Positions 1 to 34,363 of a stretch of 56,919 bases of DNA are shown here, piece by piece. The first letter of the stretch is position 1. Every line of letters starts with the position of its first letter. The translations under genes and the position numbers were made by a program. The notes under the pieces are model-generated. The model ran no database searches. It had not been told where the DNA came from and saw only the letters and a program-made list of their open reading frames with translations. Origin of the DNA: Zavarzinia sp. (GTDB lineage Bacteria; Pseudomonadota; Alphaproteobacteria; Zavarziniales; Zavarziniaceae); contig JAOZVS010000112.1 in NCBI GenBank assembly GCA_025869435.1, positions 1 to 56,919 on the forward strand, written 5' to 3'.

Positions 1-3000
1 CGTCCCCTTCCTCGCCCCGCAGGCTGTCACGGCCCGAGCCGCCGGAGAGCGTGTCGTTGTCGCGCCCGCCGAACAGCGTGTCGTTCTCGGCCCCGCCGAA
101 CAGGCGATCGTCGCCGCGCCCGCCGCGCAGGGTATCCTGCCCGCCGAGGCCTTCGAGCTTGTCGAGCTCATTGCCGCCGACCAACTCGTTGCGCTCGCCA
201 TCGCCTCGCAGGTTGTTGCGGCCGGTGGCGGAGCCGAGAAGATTCTCGATCCCGGCGAAGGTGTCGCCCGCCGCGTCGCCCGTGCCCGCCACGCCGCCGT
301 CGAGGGCGACGGTAACGCCCGTGGTCTCTTCATAGCTGGCGGCATCGATGCCGTCGCCGCCGGTCAGGGCATCCGCCCCGGCGCCGCCGACCAGCACATC
401 GTCGCCGCCGTCGCCCAGCAGCGCGTCGTCGCCCCCCCGGCCCTCGATCCGGTCGCCGCTGCCGCCGCCTTCAAGACGGTTGCCATCGGCGTCACCCTGC
501 AGCAGGTCGGTGAAATCCGAGCCGCGCAATGTCTCGACCGAGGAATAGCGGTCACCGGCGGCGAAGCCCGTGTTGCGGGCAATACCCGCCAGATCGACCT
601 GCACCGCCCCGCCCGCCAGCAGATAGGAGGCGATATCGCCGCCCTGGCCGCCGACGAAAGCCTCGCGCCCCGCCCCCGCGAGGAAGAGATCGCCGCTGTC
701 CAGCCCCTCGAAGGTCAGGTCCTGATCGTTGCCGATGAAGATGTCGACATGGGCGCTACCCCGGAAGGCTTCGATCGAGGTGAAACTGTCGCCCGTCGCG
801 TCGCCCCCCGTGAATTCCGGCACCGGCCGAAGATCGAGGATGACGCTGCGGATCGAGTTTTCATAGGACGCGGTATCGAAACCGTCGCCGCCGTCGAGAC
901 GATCGGCCCCGATGCCGCCGATCAGGACATCATTCTCGCCGCCGCCCTGCAGCGTGTCGGCCAGGTCGCCGCCGACCAGCGTATCCGCGCCCCGGCCGCC
1001 GCGTAAGGTCGTGGCCTGGTCGCGGGCGCCGCGAATCTCGTCGTCGAAAGCCGTACCCTCGACGATTTCGACCCGAACGAACGTATCGCCGCCGGCATCG
1101 CCCCGGCCGAAGGCGGGGTCGTTCATGTCGAGGGCGATGCGCGAGGCCGCGCCGGCATAGCTGGCGGTATCGATGCCGTCGCCACCGTCCAACGCATCGG
1201 CACCGCCGGCCCCGATCAGCACATCGTCGCCCTCGTCGCCGAACAGCTGGTCGTTCCACAAGCCGCCGTCCAGCCGATCGTCGCCGGCATCGCCATGCAG
1301 CACGTCGTCGCCCGACTGGCCGAACAGTGTATCGCCGCTGCCGCCGCCATCGAAGCGGTTGCCGGCATCGTCGCCCGCCATGACGTCGGTGAAGGCGGAG
1401 CCGACCCAGCGTTCGATGCTGGCGAATGTATCGCCCGCCGCATCGCCGGAATTGGCCCCCGGCACCGCCAGATTGAGCGTGATGCCGAAGCCGGCGGTCT
1501 CGTAGGACGCGGTGTCGAAGCCTTCGCCGCCCGACAGATTGTCCCGGCTGCCGCCGCCGATCAGCCTGTCGTCGCCGCCAAGGCCGGCCAGATCGTTGAT
1601 CTGGCCATTGCCGATCAGCAGATCGTCATGGGCGGAGCCGATCACATTCTCGATGCTGGTCAGGATGTCGCCCGCGGCCTCGCCGGTGAAGCCCTGGCCG
1701 AGGCCGAGGTCGACATGGACCGGCTTCTGCGACAGGCGATAGGTCGCCGTGTCGGTGCCGGTGCCGCCGTTCAGCCGGTCGCCGCCATTGCCGCCCATCA
1801 GCACGTCGTCGCCGTCGCCGCCCTGGATATCGTCGTCGCCGCCAAGGCCGCGCAGGTCGTCGGCGCCGCCGAAGCCGCGCAGCCGGTTCACATTGTCATC
1901 CGCGAGGACGAAATCGCCGGCATCGGTACCATCGACATTCTCGATGCCGAAGATCGTGTCCGACAGGCCGGAAGCGGAGGCATTGCCGCCGCCGCCGAAA
2001 TCCTGCAGCGAGACGCTGACCGGCCCGGCGATATCGCGGTAGCTGACGGTGTCGATCCCCGCGCCGCCGTCGATCAGGTTGAGGCCGAGGCCCCCCGCCA
2101 GCGTGTCGTCACCGGCGAGGCCCAGCAGGTCGTCGTTGCCGTCCCGCCCCTCGAAGACATTGTTGATCGCCTTGGTCTCGCCCTTGATCACGTCACGAAA
2201 GCGGGAGCCGATGACATTCTCGACGCTGGTCAGGCGGTCGCCCTGGGCGAAGCCGCCGGTGCCGGCGGTGCCATCGGTCGAAATGGTGATGCCGGCGGTC
2301 GAAATCTGATAGTCGGCGGTATCGGTGCCCGTGCCGCCGTCGAGCCGGTCGGCCCCGCCCCGGCCGTCCAGCCGATCGTCGCCGCCGAGGCCCTTCAGGA
2401 TATTCGCGCCGTCGCCGCCGCTGAGCGAATCGCCGAAGCGCGAGCCGGTCAGATTCTCGATGCTGATCAGGCGGTCGCCCAATTCGTCGGAATTGCCGAA
2501 GATCTGGTTGATGTCGGCGGTCCGGATCGTGACCGAGACGCCGGTGGGCGCGCTTTCATAGCTCGCCGTGTCGTTGCCCTCGCCGCCGTCGAGCGTGTCC
2601 GCCCCGCCCCGGCCTTCCAGAATATCGTCGCCGCCGAAGCCGCGCACGGTCTGCGCCGCGTTGTCGCCGCGGAATTCGTCGGCCTCGGTCCGCGTCGCAT
2701 CCATCTCGAAGATCTCGATGCTGGAATAGGAGACATTGGCGATGCGGTTGCTGGCGCTGTTGGTGAAGGCGAAGCCCGAACGGCCGGCCTCGATATCGAC
2801 GAAAACGCCCTTCACCCCGGTCGGGAACAGCGGCTCCGAATCGCTGGGCTCGGCATCGCCGGTGCCCGTGATGACGTAGCGGACGGTGTCGGTGCCGCTG
2901 CCGCCGATGATCACTTCATTGCCGGCGTCGTCGGACAGGATGTCATCGCCCGAACCCCCGTCCAGCGTGTCGTTGCCGATACCGCCATGGAGGATGTCGT

Positions 3001-3298
3001 CGTCGCCATCGCCGAACAAGCGGTCGTCGCCGCCGTCACCGAAGATCACGTCATCGCCCGAGCCGCCGTGGAATTCGTCGTTGCCGCCACTGCTCCAGGA
3101 ACTGAAGCCGTGGACCGCGAAATTGAAGGCGATGCGGGCCGGGCCGCCGCTCCAGGCGCCATCGGCGATCAGATCGGCGCCGCCGAAGCCGAACACGACA
3201 TCATTGCCGCCCCGGCCATAGATATCGTCGGCGCCGGAGGTGACGCCATCGGCGCCGTCGATCGTCTCGGCCGAAGTCGTGCCGCGGATGTCTGCCAT
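1..3298 (-). CDS. RTX calcium-binding repeat protein, 5' part (C-terminus outside window)
   Basis: The frame is open from the ATG at 3298 to the window edge, giving about 1,099 residues without a stop. The protein starts MADIRGTTSAETIDG, with no signal peptide. It is built almost entirely of glycine/aspartate nonapeptides (GGxGxDxLx, for example GGDDRLFGDGDDD), which bind Ca2+ in parallel beta-rolls. Between the rolls a second motif of the type G-x-D-T-A-S-Y recurs ten times (minus-strand copies near 331, 622, 861, 1156, 1501, 1737, 2036, 2308, 2557 and 2873). It is followed each time by a beta-rich linker and a GD-x-x-x-S-I-E-N-x-x-GS segment, so the protein is a string of modules of roughly 80-115 residues. 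Proteins of this type are normally exported by a type I secretion system through a C-terminal signal, which would lie outside this window. Adhesin, S-layer-like or enzyme roles cannot be told apart because no catalytic domain is visible in this part. Confidence 0.9.
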   Translation of the reverse strand, partial: MADIRGTTSAETIDGADGVTSGADDIYGRGGNDVVFGFGGADLIADGAWSGGPARIAFNFAVHGFSSWSSGGNDEFHGGSGDDVIFGDGGDDRLFGDGDDDILHGGIGNDTLDGGSGDDILSDDAGNEVIIGGSGTDTVRYVITGTGDAEPSDSEPLFPTGVKGVFVDIEAGRSGFAFTNSASNRIANVSYSSIEIFEMDATRTEADEFRGDNAAQTVRGFGGDDILEGRGGADTLDGGEGNDTASYESAPTGVSVTIRTADINQIFGNSDELGDRLISIENLTGSRFGDSLSGGDGANILKGLGGDDRLDGRGGADRLDGGTGTDTADYQISTAGITISTDGTAGTGGFAQGDRLTSVENVIGSRFRDVIKGETKAINNVFEGRDGNDDLLGLAGDDTLAGGLGLNLIDGGAGIDTVSYRDIAGPVSVSLQDFGGGGNASASGLSDTIFGIENVDGTDAGDFVLADDNVNRLRGFGGADDLRGLGGDDDIQGGDGDDVLMGGNGGDRLNGGTGTDTATYRLSQKPVHVDLGLGQGFTGEAAGDILTSIENVIGSAHDDLLIGNGQINDLAGLGGDDRLIGGGSRDNLSGGEGFDTASYETAGFGITLNLAVPGANSGDAAGDTFASIERWVGSAFTDVMAGDDAGNRFDGGGSGDTLFGQSGDDVLHGDAGDDRLDGGLWNDQLFGDEGDDVLIGAGGADALDGGDGIDTASYAGAASRIALDMNDPAFGRGDAGGDTFVRVEIVEGTAFDDEIRGARDQATTLRGGRGADTLVGGDLADTLQGGGENDVLIGGIGADRLDGGDGFDTASYENSIRSVILDLRPVPEFTGGDATGDSFTSIEAFRGSAHVDIFIGNDQDLTFEGLDSGDLFLAGAGREAFVGGQGGDIASYLLAGGAVQVDLAGIARNTGFAAGDRYSSVETLRGSDFTDLLQGDADGNRLEGGGSGDRIEGRGGDDALLGDGGDDVLVGGAGADALTGGDGIDAASYEETTGVTVALDGGVAGTGDAAGDTFAGIENLLGSATGRNNLRGDGERNELVGGNELDKLEGLGGQDTLRGGRGDDRLFGGAENDTLFGGRDNDTLSGGSGRDSLRGEEGD

Positions 3299-3438
3299 CA
3301 TGCGCTCCCTGGTCTCTGCGGGGCCGCCACCGGCCGCCCCGCCACGTCGCGGGCAAGGCGGGACTGTCGCCAGCCACGGGTGCGGCTGGCCGGCAAGCGA
3401 CCGGACATCAAGCAAACCGCCGACGGTCGGGCTCCCCC

Positions 3439-3477
3439 CTCATGCCGGCGCCTAAGAATTAATCTCATGCCGGCGCC
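3439..3477. repeat. 14-bp direct repeat pair upstream of RTX gene
   Basis: Two exact copies of CTCATGCCGGCGCC are separated by 11 bp (TAAGAATTAAT). The AT-rich spacer lies about 150 bp upstream of the RTX start and overlaps a possible minus-strand -10 element. The arrangement looks like a pair of operator sites, but no regulator is identified. Confidence 0.45.
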
Positions 3478-3554
3478 GGAACAACCCGCGTCCTGACTGG
3501 CGGGCGTGACCCGGGTCACATTCCCGCCGATTGCGGCAAGGCGGGGGACTCCGG

Positions 3555-3583
3555 TTGACTTCGGCCCAAAGCCCCCGTATAGA
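3555..3583 (+). promoter_or_regulatory. Sigma-70 promoter of the rpmH operon
   Basis: TTGACT (3555-3560) and TATAGA (3578-3583) are separated by exactly 17 bp, close to the housekeeping consensus. Transcription would start near 3590, leaving a leader of about 60 nt before rpmH. This is the best-looking promoter in the window and fits a ribosomal-protein gene. Confidence 0.7.
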
Positions 3584-3648
3584 CCGTGGCTCGTTTCGGC
3601 AAGGCGCTGGCAAAGCACCCTGTCGGCCAATGATAATGGAGTAATCCG

Positions 3649-3783
3649 GTGAAGCGGACCTATCAACCGAGCGCCATCGTGCGCAAGCGCCGTCATGGCT
3701 TCCGTTCGCGCATGTCGACCGTGGGTGGCCGGGTGGTGATCGCCCGTCGCCGCGCCAAGGGGCGCAAGCGTCTTTCGGCCTGA
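3649..3783 (+). CDS. rpmH: 50S ribosomal protein L34
   Basis: A 44-residue, highly basic protein with the full L34 signature: it begins MKRTYQPS, contains [12 protein letters not shown], and ends in GRKRLSA. Length is the family norm. The start is GTG with a GGAG ribosome-binding site at 3638-3641. L34 is part of the large ribosomal subunit. The gene leads a typical bacterial block with rnpA, yidD and yidC directly downstream, and its own sigma-70 promoter lies about 65 bp upstream. Confidence 0.97.
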
Positions 3784-3788
3784 CGACC

Positions 3789-4223
3789 ATGCCGGCCGCT
3801 GACAGGCCGGCCTCGACGGATCTGCCGCAGCCGCATGAGAGCCCCGAGCAAGGGGCATTCGTGCGGCTGCGGCTTGTTCGCCTGAAGACACGGCAGGAGT
3901 TTCTGGCAGTGGCTGGGGCAAGACGAAAGTTCACGACCCCGGGCCTGATGCTTCAGGCCATGGCCCGTGCCGACGCCGATGCGGCGGAAGCCCGCGTCGG
4001 CTTCACGGCCTCGCGCAAGGTCGGCAATTCCGTGGTGCGCAATCGCTCCAAGCGCCGGCTGCGCGCGCTCGTCGACGAGATCATGCCGGCCCAGGCCCTC
4101 GGCGGGACCGATTATGTCCTCGTGTGCCGCCAGGAGACGGCGGTGCGGCCGTTCGACGATCTGCGCCGCGACCTGACCACGGCCCTTGGCCGCCTGAAGC
4201 TGCTGCGGAGCCCGCAGCCGTGA
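3789..4223 (+). CDS. rnpA: Ribonuclease P protein component
   Basis: Protein subunit of RNase P, which helps the catalytic RNA cut 5' leaders from pre-tRNAs. The diagnostic RNR motif is present as [13 protein letters not shown], preceded by [12 protein letters not shown]. The frame gives 144 residues from the ATG at 3789. The first 24 residues are not family-like and a GTG at 3861 ([14 protein letters not shown]) gives about 120 residues, the usual length, so the true start may be 3861. The gene lies 5 bp after rpmH and its stop overlaps the GTG start of yidD. Confidence 0.95.
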
Positions 4224-4531
4224 GGGCCCGGCTGTCCGCGCTCGCCGTCGCGCTGCTCAGCCTTCCCGTGCTGATCTGGCGTTATCTGATTTCGCCGGCC
4301 CTGCCGCCGGCCTGCCGCTACATGCCGAGTTGCTCGGCCTATGCGCTGGAAGCCCTTCGCGTGCATGGCCCCGTCCGGGGCAGCGCGCTGACGGTCCGCC
4401 GCCTGTGCCGCTGCCATCCCTTCGGTAGCCATGGTTACGACCCCGTACCCCCCAGGGGCACGACATTATTCGCATGCCGCTCCGCGGCCACTCCCCCCAT
4501 CACGCCCACAGGTGCCGGTGATGCTCGATAA
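4220..4531 (+). CDS. yidD: Membrane protein insertion efficiency factor YidD
   Basis: A small (103 residue) membrane-associated protein that helps YidC/Sec insert membrane proteins. It shows the family core: an N-terminal hydrophobic helix, then [23 protein letters not shown], then [15 protein letters not shown], with the conserved cysteines. The GTG start overlaps the rnpA stop, and the 3' end runs 11 bp into yidC, so the three genes are probably translationally coupled. The tail after DPVP is longer than in many YidD proteins and has no visible motif. Confidence 0.93.
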
Positions 4532-6338
4532 TCGCAATCTGATCCTGGCCGTCGTCGCCTCGATTCTGATCCTGCTCGGCTTCAACTACTTCGTCGACGC
4601 GCCGCGCCAGCGCCAGCGGGAACAGGCGGCGGCGATCGCGCCGGCAACGGCCCCCGCCGTCCCCGGCACGCCCTCGGCGACCCCGGCGCCGGACGCCGAC
4701 CCGGCGACCGCCGCCGCCGTTGGCCCCGCCGTGCCGATGGAGCGCCCCGCCGCCCTCGCCCTCAGCCCGCGCCTCGACATCGAGACCGCCCGTCTGCATG
4801 GCTCGGTGGCGCTGAAAGGCGGCCGGATCGACGACGTGACCCTGCGCGACTATCGCGAAACCACCGATCCGGATAGCCCGGAGATCAAGCTGCTGTCCCC
4901 GATCGGCTCCATGACCCCCTATTTCGCCGAATTCGGCTGGGTCGCGCCGGCCGGTGGCACGGTGAAACTGCCGGACGCGGACACCGTCTGGTCGGGCTCG
5001 GGCAAGCTGACGGAAAAGACCCCGGTCACCCTGACCTGGGACAATGGCCAGGGCGTCGTCTTCACCCGCGTCATCGGTCTCGACGAGAACTACATGTTCA
5101 CGATCGAGGACAAATTCGCCAACAACACCGGCGCCCCCCTCGCCCTCTTCCCGCGCGCCCTCGTCGCCCGCGTCGAGATGCCGGCGACCGAAGGCCTGTT
5201 CATCCTGCACGAGGGGCCGGTCGGCATCCTGAACGGCAAGCTGGAAGAACACGACTACAAGAACATGACGGAAGAGGCCGTTCCGCCCGTGACCACCAAG
5301 GGCGGCTGGATCGGTATCACCGACAAATACTGGCTCTCGGCCATCGTGCCCGACCAGACGGCAGAAGTGACGGCGAAATTCGCCCACACCCGCTTCGGCG
5401 ACCGCGACCGGTTCGAGGTGAATTACACCGGCGGCGCGCTCGATGTCGCGGCCGGTGCCAGCGGCGGGGTCACCCACCGCCTGTTCGCCGGCGCCAAGAT
5501 CGTCGACCTGCTGCAGGCCTATCGCGACAACCTCGGCATCGAGCGTTTCGAATATGCCGTGGACTTCGGCTGGTTCTTCTTCCTGACCAAGCCGATCTTC
5601 CTGATCCTCGATTTCCTCTATCGCCTCGTCGGCAACTTCGGCGTCGCCATCCTGATCCTCACCCTGGCGTTCAAGGGCGTGTTCTACCCGCTGGCGAACA
5701 AGTCCTACCGGGCGATGAACAAGATGAAGGACGCCCAGCCCGAGATGCAGCGCATCCGCGAGCAGTTCGCCGACGACAAGGCGCGCCAGCAGCAGGAACT
5801 GATGGCGCTCTACAAGCGCGAGAAGATCAATCCATTGGCCGGCTGCCTGCCGATCCTGATCCAGATCCCGGTGTTCTTCTCGCTCTACAAGGTGCTCTAC
5901 GTCACCATCGAGATGCGGCACGCGCCCTTCTTCGGCTGGATCCAGGATCTGTCGGCGCCCGATCCGACCCATATCCTGAATCTGTTCGGCCTTATTCCGT
6001 GGGACCCGCCGGGCTTCCTCGCCCTTGGCGTCTGGCCGATCCTGATGGGCATTTCGATGTTCCTGCAGCAGCGCATGAACCCGGCGCCGCCCGATCCCAT
6101 CCAGCAGCGCATCTTCATGCTGATGCCGATCATCTTCACCTTCTTCCTGGCGACCTTCCCGGCGGGCCTGGTCATCTACTGGACCTGGAACAACCTGCTC
6201 TCGATCGCCCAGCAGTGGATGATCCGGCGCCGGACCCCGGCCCCCGTCGCCGTCGCGGCCGGTGCCCCGACGGCCTCGAAGGCCCTGCCGGGTCGTTCCG
6301 GCAGCCCGACCGGCGGCCGGCCGCCGGGCAAACGATGA
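4521..6338 (+). CDS. yidC: Membrane protein insertase YidC (Oxa1 family)
   Basis: A 605-residue inner-membrane insertase. The start at 4521 is chosen because the protein then begins [20 protein letters not shown], the typical first membrane segment. A Pro/Ala-rich linker, the large periplasmic domain (about residues 100-330) and the Oxa1 core follow ([20 protein letters not shown], then [35 protein letters not shown] and a last segment near [14 protein letters not shown]). The frame is open upstream to 4431 but that extension is not family-like. Overlaps yidD by 11 bp and engB by 4 bp. Confidence 0.97.
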
Positions 6339-7006
6339 CCGACAAGCTGCGACCCGAAGACGGCGCCGTCACGCCCGAGACCCTCGAGGCGGGACGGAAG
6401 CTGTTCGCGGCCGAATGCCAGTTCACCTGGGGCGCGACCAGGCTCGCCGAGCTGCCGCCCCCGGGCCTGCCCGAGATCGCCTTCGCCGGGCGCTCCAATG
6501 TCGGCAAATCGTCGCTGGTGAATGCCCTGACCGGGCGGAACACCCTCGCGCGGGTGTCCAACACCCCGGGGCGGACCCAGCAGCTGAATTTCTTCAATCT
6601 CGGCGACCGCCTGACCCTCGTCGATCTGCCGGGCTACGGCTTCGCCAAGGTCTCCAAGGACAAGGTCGCCCAATGGGTCGACCTGACCGAGACCTTCCTG
6701 GCCGGCCGCCCGAACCTGAAGCGGGTCCTCGTCCTGATCGACAGCCGCCACGGCCCCAAGGCCCCCGACCATGCGGCGATGAAGCTGCTCGACAAGTCGG
6801 CGGTGTCCTATCAGATCGTGCTGACCAAGACCGACAAGATGAAAACGGCCGAACTCGAGGCCATGACCAAGACCGTCGCCGAGGCGATCCGGCCCCATGT
6901 CGCGGCCCATCCGGTGATCCTGCCGACGTCGAGCGAGACCGGTGCCGGCATTCCCGAGTTGCGTGCCACCCTCGCGGCACTTGGCAATCCGGCCGCATTG
7001 GGTTAA
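6335..7006 (+). CDS. engB: Ribosome biogenesis GTPase EngB/YihA/YsxC
   Basis: A 223-residue P-loop GTPase needed for late large-subunit assembly. Motifs visible: G1 [10 protein letters not shown]2 around [13 protein letters not shown]3 DLPGYGFA, G4 TKTDK. The ATG overlaps the yidC stop (ATGA), which fixes the start. The same neighbourhood (yidC-engB-argB) is common in alphaproteobacteria, and argB follows after 32 bp. Confidence 0.96.
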
Positions 7007-7038
7007 GCGAAGCCCACTCTCGGGACAAGGAAGCTGTG

Positions 7039-8001
7039 ATGAGCGACAAGCCGGATACCGCCGCCGCCGAACGGGCCGACCTGAAACTGCGCACCCGCTG
7101 GCTGCATACCGCCACGACCATCACCGAAGCCCTGCCCTACATGCGGCGCTACGCCGACAGCAGCTTCGTCGTCAAATACGGCGGCCATGCCATGGGGGAC
7201 GACGCGGCGGCCAAGGCCTTCGCCCGCGACATCGTCCTTCTCAAGCAGGTCGGCATCAATCCGATCGTCGTCCATGGCGGCGGCCCGCAGATCGGCAAGA
7301 TGCTGGACCGGCTGGGCATCAAGTCGTCCTTCATCGATGGCTTGCGCGTCACCGATCAGCCGGCGGTCGAGGTGGTGGAAATGGTCCTCGCCGGCTCGAT
7401 CAACAAGCAGATCGTCGGCGCGATCAATGCCGCCGGGGGCAATGCCATCGGCATTTCCGGCAAGGACGGCCCGCTGATCCGCGCCCGCAAGCTGACCAAG
7501 ACCAAGCACGACCCCGAATCGAACATCGAGAAGGTGCTCGACTATGGTTTCGTCGGCGAGCCCGAATCGGTCGATCCCCGCGTGCTCTATCTGTTCGAGC
7601 GGTCGGACTTCATCCCCGTCGTCGCGCCCATCGGCATCAGCGAGGACGGCCACACCTATAATATCAATGCCGATACCGCGGCGGGCGCCATCGCCTCGGC
7701 CATGCGGGCCTCGCGCTTCCTGCTGCTGACCGACGTGCCGGGCGTTCTCGACAAGGACGGCAAGCTGATCGACCGCATGACGGCGGAACAGGCCCGCGCC
7801 CTGATCGCCGACGGCACGATCCACGGCGGCATGATCCCCAAGGTGGAAACCTGCCTCGATGCGGTCGACAGCGGCGTCGAGGCCGCCGTCATCCTTGACG
7901 GCCGCACGCCCCATGCCCTGCTGCTGGAAACCTTCACCGCCCATGGCGCCGGCACGTTGATCGAGAGCGCCGCCCACGCCGGCCGCGGCATCGAGCGCTA
8001 G
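7039..8001 (+). CDS. argB: Acetylglutamate kinase
   Basis: A 320-residue amino-acid kinase that phosphorylates N-acetyl-L-glutamate, the second step of arginine synthesis. Visible motifs: [13 protein letters not shown] (phosphate-binding glycines), [28 protein letters not shown], and [15 protein letters not shown] near the C-terminus. The start follows an AAGGAAG ribosome-binding site. It is the last gene of the rpmH operon and converges on glsA. The N-terminal extension of about 25 residues before the kinase core is typical of arginine-sensitive forms, but inhibition by arginine is only inferred. Confidence 0.96.
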
Positions 8002-29912: not shown

Positions 29913-32624
<2,712 letters not shown>

Positions 32625-32646: not shown

Positions 32647-32677
32647 AAGGCCGGGGTGGCGACACCCCGGCCTTTTT
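32647..32677 (+). terminator. Intrinsic terminator of acnA
   Basis: A 12-bp perfect stem (AAGGCCGGGGTG/CACCCCGGCCTT) with a GCGA loop, followed by a run of five T. Confidence 0.9.
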
Positions 32678-32696
32678 CATGCTCAGGCGCCTTTCG

Positions 32697-32843
32697 TTAT
32701 CATTTCGCCACGACCAAGCTAAATTATAATCATTTTACCACGACAATTATCGTTTCCCCACGACCTGCCGATTTTCTGATGTCGCCGGCCTGAGCCATTT
32801 CATTTCACCACGATGCGCGCATAATCTAATCGTTTTACCATAG
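32697..32843 (+). repeat. Five helically phased direct repeats upstream of fic
   Basis: Five copies of a 13-bp unit, consensus C[AG]TTT[CT]nCCACGA, in the same orientation: CATTTCGCCACGA at 32701, CATTTTACCACGA at 32731, CGTTTCCCCACGA at 32751, CATTTCACCACGA at 32801 and the diverged CGTTTTACCATAG at 32831. Start-to-start spacings are 30, 20, 50 and 30 bp, all multiples of 10, so every unit faces the same side of the helix. Most are preceded by an A/T-rich triplet ending in T. The whole block is visibly AT-rich for this genome. No insertion-sequence ends are seen. Confidence 0.85.
32725..32730 (+). promoter_or_regulatory. Perfect TATAAT -10 box of fic, between repeats 1 and 2
   Basis: TATAAT is a perfect -10 hexamer. 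The matching -35 position falls inside repeat 1 and the expected transcription start (about 32737) inside repeat 2. Anything binding the repeats would therefore control this promoter. No clear -35 consensus is seen. Confidence 0.55.
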
Positions 32844-32854
32844 CTGGAATCGAA

Positions 32855-34363
32855 ATGGCCTCGCCGCACGGAACAGAAAAAGAACTCGCCGCTGCGGGGC
32901 AGGCGTGGCTTCGGCAGCATCTGGGGCTTGCCGTGCCACAGCCCGCCGTGCGGAGTTTCTGTGGCCCTGGCAGCCGCAGGACCATTCATGACGGTGACCA
33001 GACCAGCGAATTCTACCCGCCCCGCTATTGGCCCGGCGAAGCCGTGCTGGATCACCTGAAATTCAGCCTGAAGCATGAAGCGCTGGACCTTCGGATCATC
33101 GTCGCCACGCTTCATCGCCTGCCGCCGATGGACCTGCTGGCCTGGATCAAGGACGCCCCGACCAGCAAGTACACCCGGCAGATCTGGTTTCTCTACGAGC
33201 ACTTCACCGGCCAGCACCTTGATCTGCCGGACTTGACCATGGGGTCTTATGTTCCGGCGATCGACCCGGCGCGGCATGTAACAGCCGGGTCCCGGAATTC
33301 CCCGCGTCACAGGGTCTACAACAACCTCATCGGCGGAAAGCGCCTGGCCGTCATCGTCCGCCGGACCCCAAAGCTCGAAAGCCTGATGTCTGTCGATATC
33401 GAGGCCGCCGTTCTTGCCGTCGTCGATCGCTACGATCCCGACCTCATAAGGCGCGCCACGAGCTACCTCTATACCAAGGAAACCCGTTCATCCTTCGCGA
33501 TCGAGGGAGAAAAGCCGAGCGCCCAGCGCACGGAACGCTTCATCTCGGCGCTGCGTCGGGCCGTCGACTTCGATCCCGTCGACCGAAGCGCTCTCATTGC
33601 TCTTCAGAACCAGATCGTCGAGGCGCGATATGCGGCACATGACTGGCGTGATTTCCAGAACTTCGTCAGCGAGACGACACCCGATTTCGAGGAACGAATC
33701 CACTATATCTGCCCACGGCCGCAGGATGTGCCGGACCTCATACGCGGCTGGCAGTTCATGGCCGACACGCTGGAAGATGATACGGCGATCCCACCCGTCC
33801 TTGCCGCGGCGATCGTCTCCTTCGCCTTCGTCTTCATTCATCCGTTCGAAGACGGCAACGGACGCATCCATCGCTTTCTGATCAACAGCGTCCTCGCGAG
33901 AAGGGGCGCGATTCCCGATGGTTTCATCTTCCCTGTATCCGCATCCATCCTGCGGCAGAAGCTCGTGTATGACCGCGTGCTGGAGCAATTCTCAGCTCCC
34001 CTGCTCGACCTCATCGCCTGGCATTGGCAAGGTCGGGACCTCGTGGTCGAAAACGACACCGCCATCCTCTACCGCTACTTCGATGCGACGGCCCAGGCCG
34101 AGTTTCTGTACGAACGGGTGATCGACACGATCGCCAACGACCTGCGCGAGGAACTTCGTTTCCTGTCGGTGTTCGACAAGGCGACCGCCGCGATGCGGGA
34201 AATCGTCGATATGCCCGACCGTCGCCTGCATCTGTTCTTCAAGCTGTGCCTGCAGAACGCCGGCCGTCTGTCCAGGGGCAGGAGAGACGATTTCCCCGAA
34301 CTGACGGACGGGGAAATCGCGGCCCTCGAACAAGCGATCGCCGACGCGCGCGCCGAAGGCTGA
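32855..34363 (+). CDS. Fic-family protein with N-terminal inhibitory motif (class II)
   Basis: 502 residues. The Fic core motif HPFEDGNGRIHR (about residues 329-340) carries the catalytic His and phosphate-binding Asn/Arg, so AMP transfer to a protein hydroxyl is expected. An autoinhibitory motif S-F-A-I-E-G (residues 213-218, [ST]xxxE[GN]) lies before the core, the class II arrangement in which one protein contains its own antitoxin helix. The first 150 residues are a separate domain I do not recognise (YTRQIWFLYEHFTGQHLDLPD). The C-terminus QNAGRLSRGRRDDFPELTDGEI could be a small winged-helix-type module. Start is ATG 12 bp after the last upstream repeat. It stands alone between acnA and a convergent reductase gene. 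Target protein unknown. Confidence 0.9.
   Translation: MASPHGTEKELAAAGQAWLRQHLGLAVPQPAVRSFCGPGSRRTIHDGDQTSEFYPPRYWPGEAVLDHLKFSLKHEALDLRIIVATLHRLPPMDLLAWIKDAPTSKYTRQIWFLYEHFTGQHLDLPDLTMGSYVPAIDPARHVTAGSRNSPRHRVYNNLIGGKRLAVIVRRTPKLESLMSVDIEAAVLAVVDRYDPDLIRRATSYLYTKETRSSFAIEGEKPSAQRTERFISALRRAVDFDPVDRSALIALQNQIVEARYAAHDWRDFQNFVSETTPDFEERIHYICPRPQDVPDLIRGWQFMADTLEDDTAIPPVLAAAIVSFAFVFIHPFEDGNGRIHRFLINSVLARRGAIPDGFIFPVSASILRQKLVYDRVLEQFSAPLLDLIAWHWQGRDLVVENDTAILYRYFDATAQAEFLYERVIDTIANDLREELRFLSVFDKATAAMREIVDMPDRRLHLFFKLCLQNAGRLSRGRRDDFPELTDGEIAALEQAIADARAEG

What the first reader, a model, noticed from the sequence alone, without database searches (positions are those of the whole stretch)
32697..32843. 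Five same-orientation repeats phased in 10-bp steps upstream of a lone Fic gene
Seen directly: 13-bp units at 32701, 32731, 32751, 32801 and 32831, spaced 30, 20, 50 and 30 bp, all on one helix face. A perfect TATAAT lies between units 1 and 2, so unit 1 covers the -35 position and unit 2 the start site. Unit 5 sits 12 bp before the ATG. Inference: a dedicated cooperative operator array controls the Fic protein, perhaps bound by its own terminal domains. I know of no described regulator with this motif. This is the best candidate in the window for an undescribed system.
Basis: partly seen in the sequence, partly recalled or inferred. Interest (0 to 1): 0.82.

Follow-up and report, generated by a model that had tools for sequence, protein, structure and literature searches.

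The report
Conserved operator array before Fic gene
A probable anti-virus toxin gene of the Fic family carries, just before and at its start, a patterned set of short DNA repeats that is kept in distant bacteria and is most likely the switch by which the toxin turns its own gene down.

Summary
The repeats are real and conserved, but relatives show another rule than the one proposed: not five units in 10-bp steps, but rigid three-unit modules with spacings 30 and 20. The window has two, 100 bp apart: 32697/32727/32747 and 32797/32827/32847; the last, degenerate and overlapping the start codon, was missed. A motif learned from eight fic loci of other bacteria (51-55% protein identity) ranks window units 3, 5, 2 and 1 as 1st-4th of 113,806 positions and both triplets first. 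Motif-free, 50 of 63 independent upstream regions show at least two of the spacings 20, 29/30, 49/50; control offsets give 1-4 of 63. A strict triplet pattern has 5 exact places in 372 alphaproteobacterial genomes, all before this fic family or its remnant. The gene is a class II Fic protein matching PADLOC candidate PDC-S24 over its length. Its N-terminal domain weakly resembles the antitoxin AbiEi, which binds repeats at its own promoter. Best reading: a dedicated operator for autorepression by the Fic protein. Conservation is shown; binding and repression are inferred.

The parts
32697..32713 (+). unit 1 (distal triplet, first): TTATCATTTCGCCACGA
   Evidence: rank 4 of 113,806 with a motif trained on 8 relatives only
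32727..32743 (+). unit 2 (distal triplet, second): TAATCATTTTACCACGA
   Evidence: rank 3 of 113,806
32747..32763 (+). unit 3 (distal triplet, third): TTATCGTTTCCCCACGA
   Evidence: rank 1 of 113,806
32797..32813 (+). unit 4 (proximal triplet, first): ATTTCATTTCACCACGA
   Evidence: rank 131 of 113,806
32827..32843 (+). unit 5 (proximal triplet, second): TAATCGTTTTACCATAG
   Evidence: rank 2 of 113,806
32847..32863 (+). putative degenerate unit 6 (proximal triplet, third), overlaps the fic start codon: GAATCGAAATGGCCTCG
   Evidence: at the spacing kept in relatives; rank 500 of 113,806; core kept in L026
32820..32825 (+). putative -10 element CATAAT at the 5' edge of unit 5
   Evidence: kept in the same-genus relative; in L096 and L099 a TAGAAT lies at the edge of the second unit, 16 nt after TTGATT in the first unit (read by eye); no consensus -35 here, the simple scan does not list this site
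32725..32730 (+).
   Evidence: present but not kept in L026
32647..32674 (+). 12-bp perfect inverted repeat plus T-run, likely the terminator of the upstream aconitase-like gene; upstream limit of the fic control region
   Evidence: (I5); not reported by the simple scan
32855..34363 (+). fic gene, 502 aa, class II Fic protein, PADLOC candidate PDC-S24
   Evidence: Pfam Fic 242-347; PDC-S24 588 bits over residues 13-499; 54 of 54 aligned sequences match PDC-S24
32891..33346 (+). N-terminal domain (residues 13-164) weakly resembling the AbiEi antitoxin C-terminal domain
   Evidence: AlphaFold model; Foldseek 1zel prob 0.87, E 0.12, TMq 0.47, no hit at E<=0.001; hhalign P 0.0005 over 146 columns, reversed controls 0.18 and 0.63
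33491..33508 (+). inhibitory helix motif S213-FAI-E217-G218, (S/T)xxxE(G/N), N-terminal to the Fic motif (class II)
   Evidence: E217 invariant and S213 nearly invariant in 54 sequences; motif definition in PMC9755527 passages
33839..33874 (+). Fic catalytic motif H329PFEDGNGRIHR340
   Evidence: H329, P330, D333, G334, N335, G336, R337, R340 invariant in 54 sequences

Best explanation
The units are a dedicated operator of a self-regulated, self-inhibited Fic toxin that probably serves phage defence. The protein, probably through its AbiEi-like N-terminal domain and perhaps a basic C-terminal helical region, binds the same-strand units as two three-site modules (spacings 30 and 20). Occupied sites cover the promoter and block RNA polymerase, keeping a dangerous enzyme scarce; when the protein is titrated or altered, for example during infection, synthesis rises. 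Shown: units, triplet geometry, conservation with this gene family in distant bacteria, scarcity elsewhere, class II motifs. Inferred: the ligand is the Fic protein itself, the effect is repression, the place of the promoter, the role in defence.
For: 63 independent upstream regions (<75% protein identity): 159 sites against 13 on the reverse complement and 11.6 in shuffles, each locus left out of training (the starting seeds included the five window units); pair distances 20 (37 pairs), 29-30 (29), 49-50 (35), every other distance at most 6. Motif-free: offset 20 in 52 of 63 regions, 30 in 34, 50 in 31, mean over all offsets 5.7. Triplet score >=15 in 39 of 63 upstream regions, against 0 of 640 chunks around 21 loci that match only in the Fic domain, 0 of 197 coding chunks, 0 of 63 reverse complements (this PWM was trained on the positives). 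Held-out test: a motif from 8 relatives, seeded from their own arrays, finds both window triplets first. A strict 29/20 triplet pattern has 5 exact places in 372 alphaproteobacterial genomes: 4 at 3 intact genes of this family, 1 at a 38-aa remnant. Nine of the ten plasmid loci fetched have a gene table, and the genes beside fic differ from record to record, so no constant neighbour there could be the binder. Class II motif. AbiEi-like domain. Precedents: CccR, a Fic-HTH protein, represses its own promoter (PMC9755527, passages); AbiEi and Rv2827c bind repeats at their own promoters (PMC7319586, passages).
Against: No binding or expression data. No HTH domain among the Pfam hits (E<=1) of 54 members. 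The AbiEi similarity is weak: Foldseek E 0.12 with nothing at E<=0.001, hhalign probability 30%. AbiEi operators are inverted repeats, these are direct. AbiEi upstream regions gave scattered motif hits in 14 of 31 and, in the 20 looked at, no peak at 20, 30 or 50. A family-wide motif trained on 51 loci below 45% identity does not single out the window's units (ranks 21 and 40, the rest 713-5373; no window triplet among the five best of either strand) because the window's clade uses a 17-bp dialect ending CCACGA. 3 of 63 loci show none of the spacings and 10 only one. The strict pattern does not find the window's own array. A partner gene elsewhere in the genome was not tested for. Start codons and promoters are inferred from sequence only; the one promoter-like site found by the simple scan is elsewhere, 32674-32703.
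Confidence: 0.6

Rival explanations
1. The array is an operator, but for a host regulator or xenogeneic silencer acting in trans, not for the Fic protein.
For: No recognised DNA-binding domain in Pfam; the units look AT-richer than their surroundings in the window (by eye); relatives lie on plasmids of many genera.
Against: The geometry is seen in Pseudomonadota and Bacteroidota and, more weakly, in single Deinococcota (L127) and Myxococcota (L013) loci, which share no obvious silencer (recalled); the exact strict triplet occurs only at this gene family or its remnant in 372 genomes; the motif has dialects that go with Fic subclades.
Confidence: 0.2
2. The repeats act in the mRNA, as protein- or sRNA-binding repeats in the 5' leader and first codons, controlling translation.
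For: The proximal triplet lies at or inside the coding start in many relatives, for instance encoding FSGPVTVFH in L060 and L069.
Against: The distal triplet lies upstream of the likely (inferred) promoter in the window and in five Bacteroidota loci; spacings are near multiples of the DNA helical repeat; no Rfam family reaches its gathering score.
Confidence: 0.1
3. The array is a remnant or end of a mobile element (Tn7-like end sites, iterons) or a chance repeat cluster.
For: Direct repeats with helical spacing resemble iterons and transposon end sites (recalled).
Against: The array keeps its place relative to the fic start: 19 of 63 independent loci have a unit at exactly -44 from the codon aligned to residue 14; the gap between the aconitase-like gene and fic holds no gene; shuffles and reverse complements do not give it.
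Confidence: 0.03
4. The units are bound by the Fic protein not mainly to repress but to hold the toxin inactive on DNA; loss of host DNA during infection frees it (DNA as antitoxin).
For: Up to six or seven sites per locus, more than simple repression needs; the array is specific to this gene family.
Against: Few sites per cell could hold only few molecules; the class II helix already offers inhibition. No direct evidence.
Confidence: 0.07

Closest known systems
CccR (YPK_0951, Yersinia pseudotuberculosis), Fic protein with C-terminal HTH that represses its own promoter (PMC9755527, passages read)
   Same: class II Fic protein; operator near -35/-10 of its own gene; one gene is both toxin and regulator (there shown, here inferred)
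   Different: one palindromic site AGATAATCAT-N26-ATGATAATCT and an HTH seen in the crystal structure; here two triplets of non-palindromic direct repeats and no recognised HTH; CccR is a T6SS effector, secretion was not examined here
AbiE type IV toxin-antitoxin system, antitoxins AbiEi and Rv2827c (PMC7319586, passages read)
   Same: several binding sites at the promoter (two 23-bp repeats for AbiEi, four within 131 bp for Rv2827c); N-terminal domain of this Fic resembles the AbiEi C-terminal domain
   Different: AbiEi has an N-terminal winged HTH, inverted repeats and a separate toxin gene; here the domain is fused to Fic and the repeats are direct
PADLOC candidate PDC-S24 (PADLOC-DB 2.0.0)
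   Same: the gene itself: 588 bits over residues 13-499
   Different: the library entry is a protein model only; the term PDC-S24 is in no paper of the library
SoFic anti-phage Fic protein (PMC12249575, abstract and passages)
   Same: Fic domain, 76 bits over residues 220-381
   Different: the SoFic model matches only residues 220-381, not the N-terminal domain; SoFic has a downstream antitoxin gene AS1; 21 loci that match only in the Fic domain show no array

Membership tests
PADLOC PDC-S24 (candidate single-gene defence) | full-length match to model PDLC04966 | tested here: met
   588.2 bits, E 3.6e-177, residues 13-499 of model 6-489/497; 54 of 54 aligned sequences
PADLOC PDC-S24 (candidate single-gene defence) | protects a host from phage | not testable with these tools
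   needs phage assays; one neighbouring-gene hint only: a plasmid copy inside a type I restriction operon
[quoted passage not shown]
   H329PFEDGNGRIHR340; S213FAIEG218
Autorepressing Fic protein (CccR-like) | conserved repeat array at the start of its own gene | tested here: met
   the promoter itself is not mapped
Autorepressing Fic protein (CccR-like) | protein binds and represses its own promoter | not testable with these tools
   needs gel shift and reporter assays
Autorepressing Fic protein (CccR-like) | C-terminal HTH domain | tested here: inconclusive
   no Pfam HTH in 54 members; C-terminal helices with conserved basic residues; whole-model Foldseek matches to SoFic-type structures, aligned ranges not given
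Autorepressing Fic protein (CccR-like) | palindromic binding site | tested here: not met
   units are same-strand direct repeats
AbiEi antitoxin | AbiEi domain recognised by Pfam | tested here: not met
   no AbiEi family among the hits at E<=1 of 54 members; only remote similarity by fold and profile
AbiEi antitoxin | adjacent AbiEii nucleotidyltransferase toxin gene | tested here: not met
   neighbouring ORFs read as an aconitase and a convergent aldo/keto reductase (names recalled from sequence, no family search run on them)

The most novel reading that the evidence does not exclude
PDC-S24 is a one-chain toxin-antitoxin-operator system: an AbiEi-descended domain fused to a class II Fic enzyme reads a direct-repeat triplet operator found with the gene in distant bacteria, so that one polypeptide is toxin, its own inhibitor and its own repressor; the multi-site array may also act as a sensor that releases toxin when host DNA or transcription is disturbed by phage.
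Probability: 0.35. Interest if true: 0.78.

Novelty: new variant of a known kind. Interest (0 to 1): 0.63.

Why it matters
How solitary Fic toxins are kept silent until needed is, to my knowledge, largely open. A strongly conserved operator that travels with a candidate defence gene gives a direct handle: the binder, the repression and the trigger can be tested in a laboratory strain. The rigid 30/20 triplet of direct repeats is an unusual operator architecture (my judgement), and the possible AbiEi-like domain would link type IV toxin-antitoxin regulation to Fic enzymes. The array is also a specific genomic marker: the five exact places of a strict triplet pattern in 372 alphaproteobacterial genomes were at this gene family or its remnant.

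Tried and rejected
Whole-array 10-bp phasing: rejected, since distances between triplets vary. TATAAT promoter at 32725: not kept in L026. Family-wide motif as detector of the window: fails, which led to the clade-specific dialect test. Known RNA element: nothing near a gathering score. Phage origin: only 1 partial match in 50,697 phage records. Similar operator at AbiEi genes: scattered motif hits in 14 of 31 upstream regions, no 20/30/50 peak in the 20 compared with themselves. C-terminal region against AbiEi: P 0.096 and 0.7. N-domain profile against PDB sequences: nothing meaningful. Second structural aligner: not available. PADLOC web server paper (PMC9252829, passages): no mention of PDC or Fic found in the main text.

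in full: 53 places at up to 2 mismatches in 39 of 372 genomes; the backwards control gives about 31 by my own sum of its table, so the two-mismatch places are mostly chance. Beside this fic family were 5 of 5 exact, 5 of 9 one-mismatch and 2 of 39 two-mismatch places, as known from coordinates (E<=1e-50) and tblastn on the 30 fetched loci. That pattern misses most fic loci, the window's included (dialect). The pair pattern gave 7 places in 11 genomes with a control of similar size. Downstream control regions have their highest counts at offsets 18 (13 of 59) and 30 (12 of 59), far below 52 of 63.

Row handling: 97 loci had a tblastn match; 65 remained at <75% identity and 63 had enough upstream sequence. 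Searches returned at most 30 loci each, so not every match was fetched (30 loci for 45 listed places), and 10 of 259 plasmid records were fetched. Several contigs are from metagenome bins; L007 (labelled Gemmatimonadetes) and L009 (labelled Gammaproteobacteria) are very similar upstream and L009 was dropped as redundant, so bin labels may be wrong.

Full report
What is there. The 230-bp gap between the stop of an aconitase-like gene (29913-32624; name recalled from its sequence) and the fic gene (ATG at 32855, 502 aa) holds five same-strand units at 32697, 32727, 32747, 32797 and 32827. Four match TCRTTTNNCCACGA exactly. In the 3.49-Mb genome held (75.5% complete), these are the only exact matches; two further places match with one mismatch, and the backwards control gives five. 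Downstream of fic lies a convergent ORF on the minus strand.

The protein. Pfam finds only Fic, residues 242-347. PADLOC's candidate PDC-S24 matches over residues 13-499 with 588 bits, and all 54 aligned sequences match it. That PDC stands for phage defence candidate is recalled. The catalytic motif H329PFEDGNGRIHR340 and the inhibitory motif S213FAIEG218 make it a class II Fic protein (definition from passages of PMC9755527).

Relatives. I gathered loci from genome contigs (18 loci), 96 genomes related to the window's, its class (32 of 385 genomes with a match at E<=1e-50), the class of a Bizionia genome (8 of 247 at E<=1e-30), the class of a genome labelled Gammaproteobacteria (38 of 295) and plasmids (259 records at E<=1e-20, 257 covering at least 80% of the query; ten fetched). 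In all, 97 loci were usable and 63 were independent (<75% protein identity, enough upstream sequence).

The array is conserved and its geometry is a triplet. A motif of consensus TAATCGTTTTTCACGA, scored on each locus with that locus left out of training (seeds included the window units), finds 159 sites in 63 upstream regions against 13 on the reverse strand and a mean of 11.6 in shuffles. Pair distances cluster at 20 (37), 29-30 (29) and 49-50 (35); every other distance has at most 6. Without any motif, 52 of 63 regions match themselves at offset 20, 34 at 30 and 31 at 50, with a mean of 5.7 over offsets 12 to 110; 59 downstream regions have a mean of 4.2 and a highest count of 13 (offset 18), then 12 (offset 30). 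At least two of the three spacings occur in 50 of 63 regions, one in 10, none in 3 (L123, L117, L064); five sets of control offsets give two or more in 1 to 4 of 63. Loci such as L029 and L065 carry a run of seven positions on the 30/20 grid; others have two separate triplets.

The window fits this rule. With 30 and 20 as the module, units 1-3 are one triplet and units 4-5 plus a sixth position at 32847 a second. The sixth (GAATCGAAATGGCCTCG) overlaps the start codon and is degenerate. A motif trained on eight fic loci of 51-55% protein identity, seeded from their own arrays and holding no window or same-genus sequence, ranks window units 3, 5, 2 and 1 as 1st to 4th of 113,806 positions, unit 4 as 131st and unit 6 as 500th; its best triplet is 32697 and its next separate one 32797, while the best on the minus strand scores -1.1. 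Against this, a motif trained on 51 loci below 45% identity does not recognise the window (ranks 21 and 40 at best, no window triplet among its five best per strand), because this clade uses a unit one base longer ending CCACGA. The same-genus relative L026 (70% identity) keeps both triplets but 123 bp apart instead of 100, and its linker contains a short duplicated segment. So the triplets move as blocks; one 10-bp phase over the whole array is not conserved.

Promoter. L026 lacks the TATAAT at 32725 but keeps CATAAT at 32820-32825, at the edge of unit 5. In L096 and L099 the first unit contains TTGATT and a TAGAAT lies 16 nt further on, at the edge of the second unit (read by eye). In five of nine kept loci from Bacteroidota (L016, L021, L085, L086, L087) a TAnnTTTG box lies just upstream of the first proximal unit (that this is the Bacteroidota -7 element is recalled). 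I therefore place the promoter at the proximal triplet, covered by the units; this is inference. The simple scan lists one promoter-like site elsewhere, 32674-32703, and none at the proximal triplet.

Specificity. Around 21 loci that match only in the Fic domain, 0 of 640 chunks reach a triplet score that 39 of 63 upstream regions reach. In 372 alphaproteobacterial genomes the pattern TTTTTCA-29-TTTTTCA-20-TTTTTCA has 5 exact places: four beside three intact genes of this family (G275 twice, G315, G230; coordinates) and one beside a 38-aa fic remnant (G180, locus L152), followed by an Xre-like and a RES-domain ORF. With mismatches the pattern is mostly noise, and it misses the window's dialect.

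Who binds? No neighbour recurs in the nine plasmid loci with a gene table, and Pfam shows no HTH in 54 members. The N-terminal domain, modelled alone (mean pLDDT 91), has as first Foldseek hits ANT(2'')-Ia 5kqj (prob 0.63, E 0.03) and the AbiEi-type antitoxin Rv2827c 1zel (prob 0.87, TMq 0.47, E 0.12); nothing reaches E 0.001. PMC7319586 (passages) reports that a DALI search with AbiEi gave Rv2827c first, then adenylyltransferases including 5KQJ. Profile comparison with AbiEi_1 proteins gives P 0.005 and 0.003 with 6 sequences and 0.0005 with 32 (probability 30%, 146 columns in order), against 0.18 and 0.63 for reversed controls and 0.7 for the C-terminal region. Suggestive, not proof. In AbiEi the C-terminal domain is the antitoxin and also contributes to DNA binding.

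Mechanism. I propose autorepression by the Fic protein on a six-site operator (confidence 0.6). Conservation, geometry and gene specificity are shown; binding, repression and defence are inferred. Closest precedents are CccR and AbiEi; the array differs from both in being made of direct repeats in 30/20 triplets. Seven literature searches (listings seen) showed no account of this array; 'PDC-S24' occurs in no paper of the library.

Noticed in passing
L152 (G180:C36), about 1480-3025: A perfect array precedes a 38-aa fic remnant, which is followed by an Xre/MbcA-like ORF (below Pfam's cut-off) and a RES-domain ORF: a toxin-antitoxin pair seems to have replaced the Fic gene while its operator stayed.
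   Followed up: partly
L127 (Deinococcus psychrotolerans plasmid), 1-7476: The fic relative lies between hsdS and hsdR of a type I restriction operon that also holds an AbrB/MazE-like and a PemK/MazF-like gene.
   Followed up: no
relatives such as L060 and L069, first codons of fic: The last two operator units lie inside the coding sequence and encode the peptide FSGPVTVFH, so DNA and protein constraints overlap there.
   Followed up: partly
L026, between the two triplets: The linker holds a tandem duplication of about 22 bp (GATAACGATCCAGGGGATCTTT twice), probably the reason for its longer inter-triplet distance.
   Followed up: no
L007 and L009: Contigs labelled Gemmatimonadetes and Gammaproteobacteria are very similar upstream of fic and in the protein: recent transfer or mis-binned contigs.
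   Followed up: no
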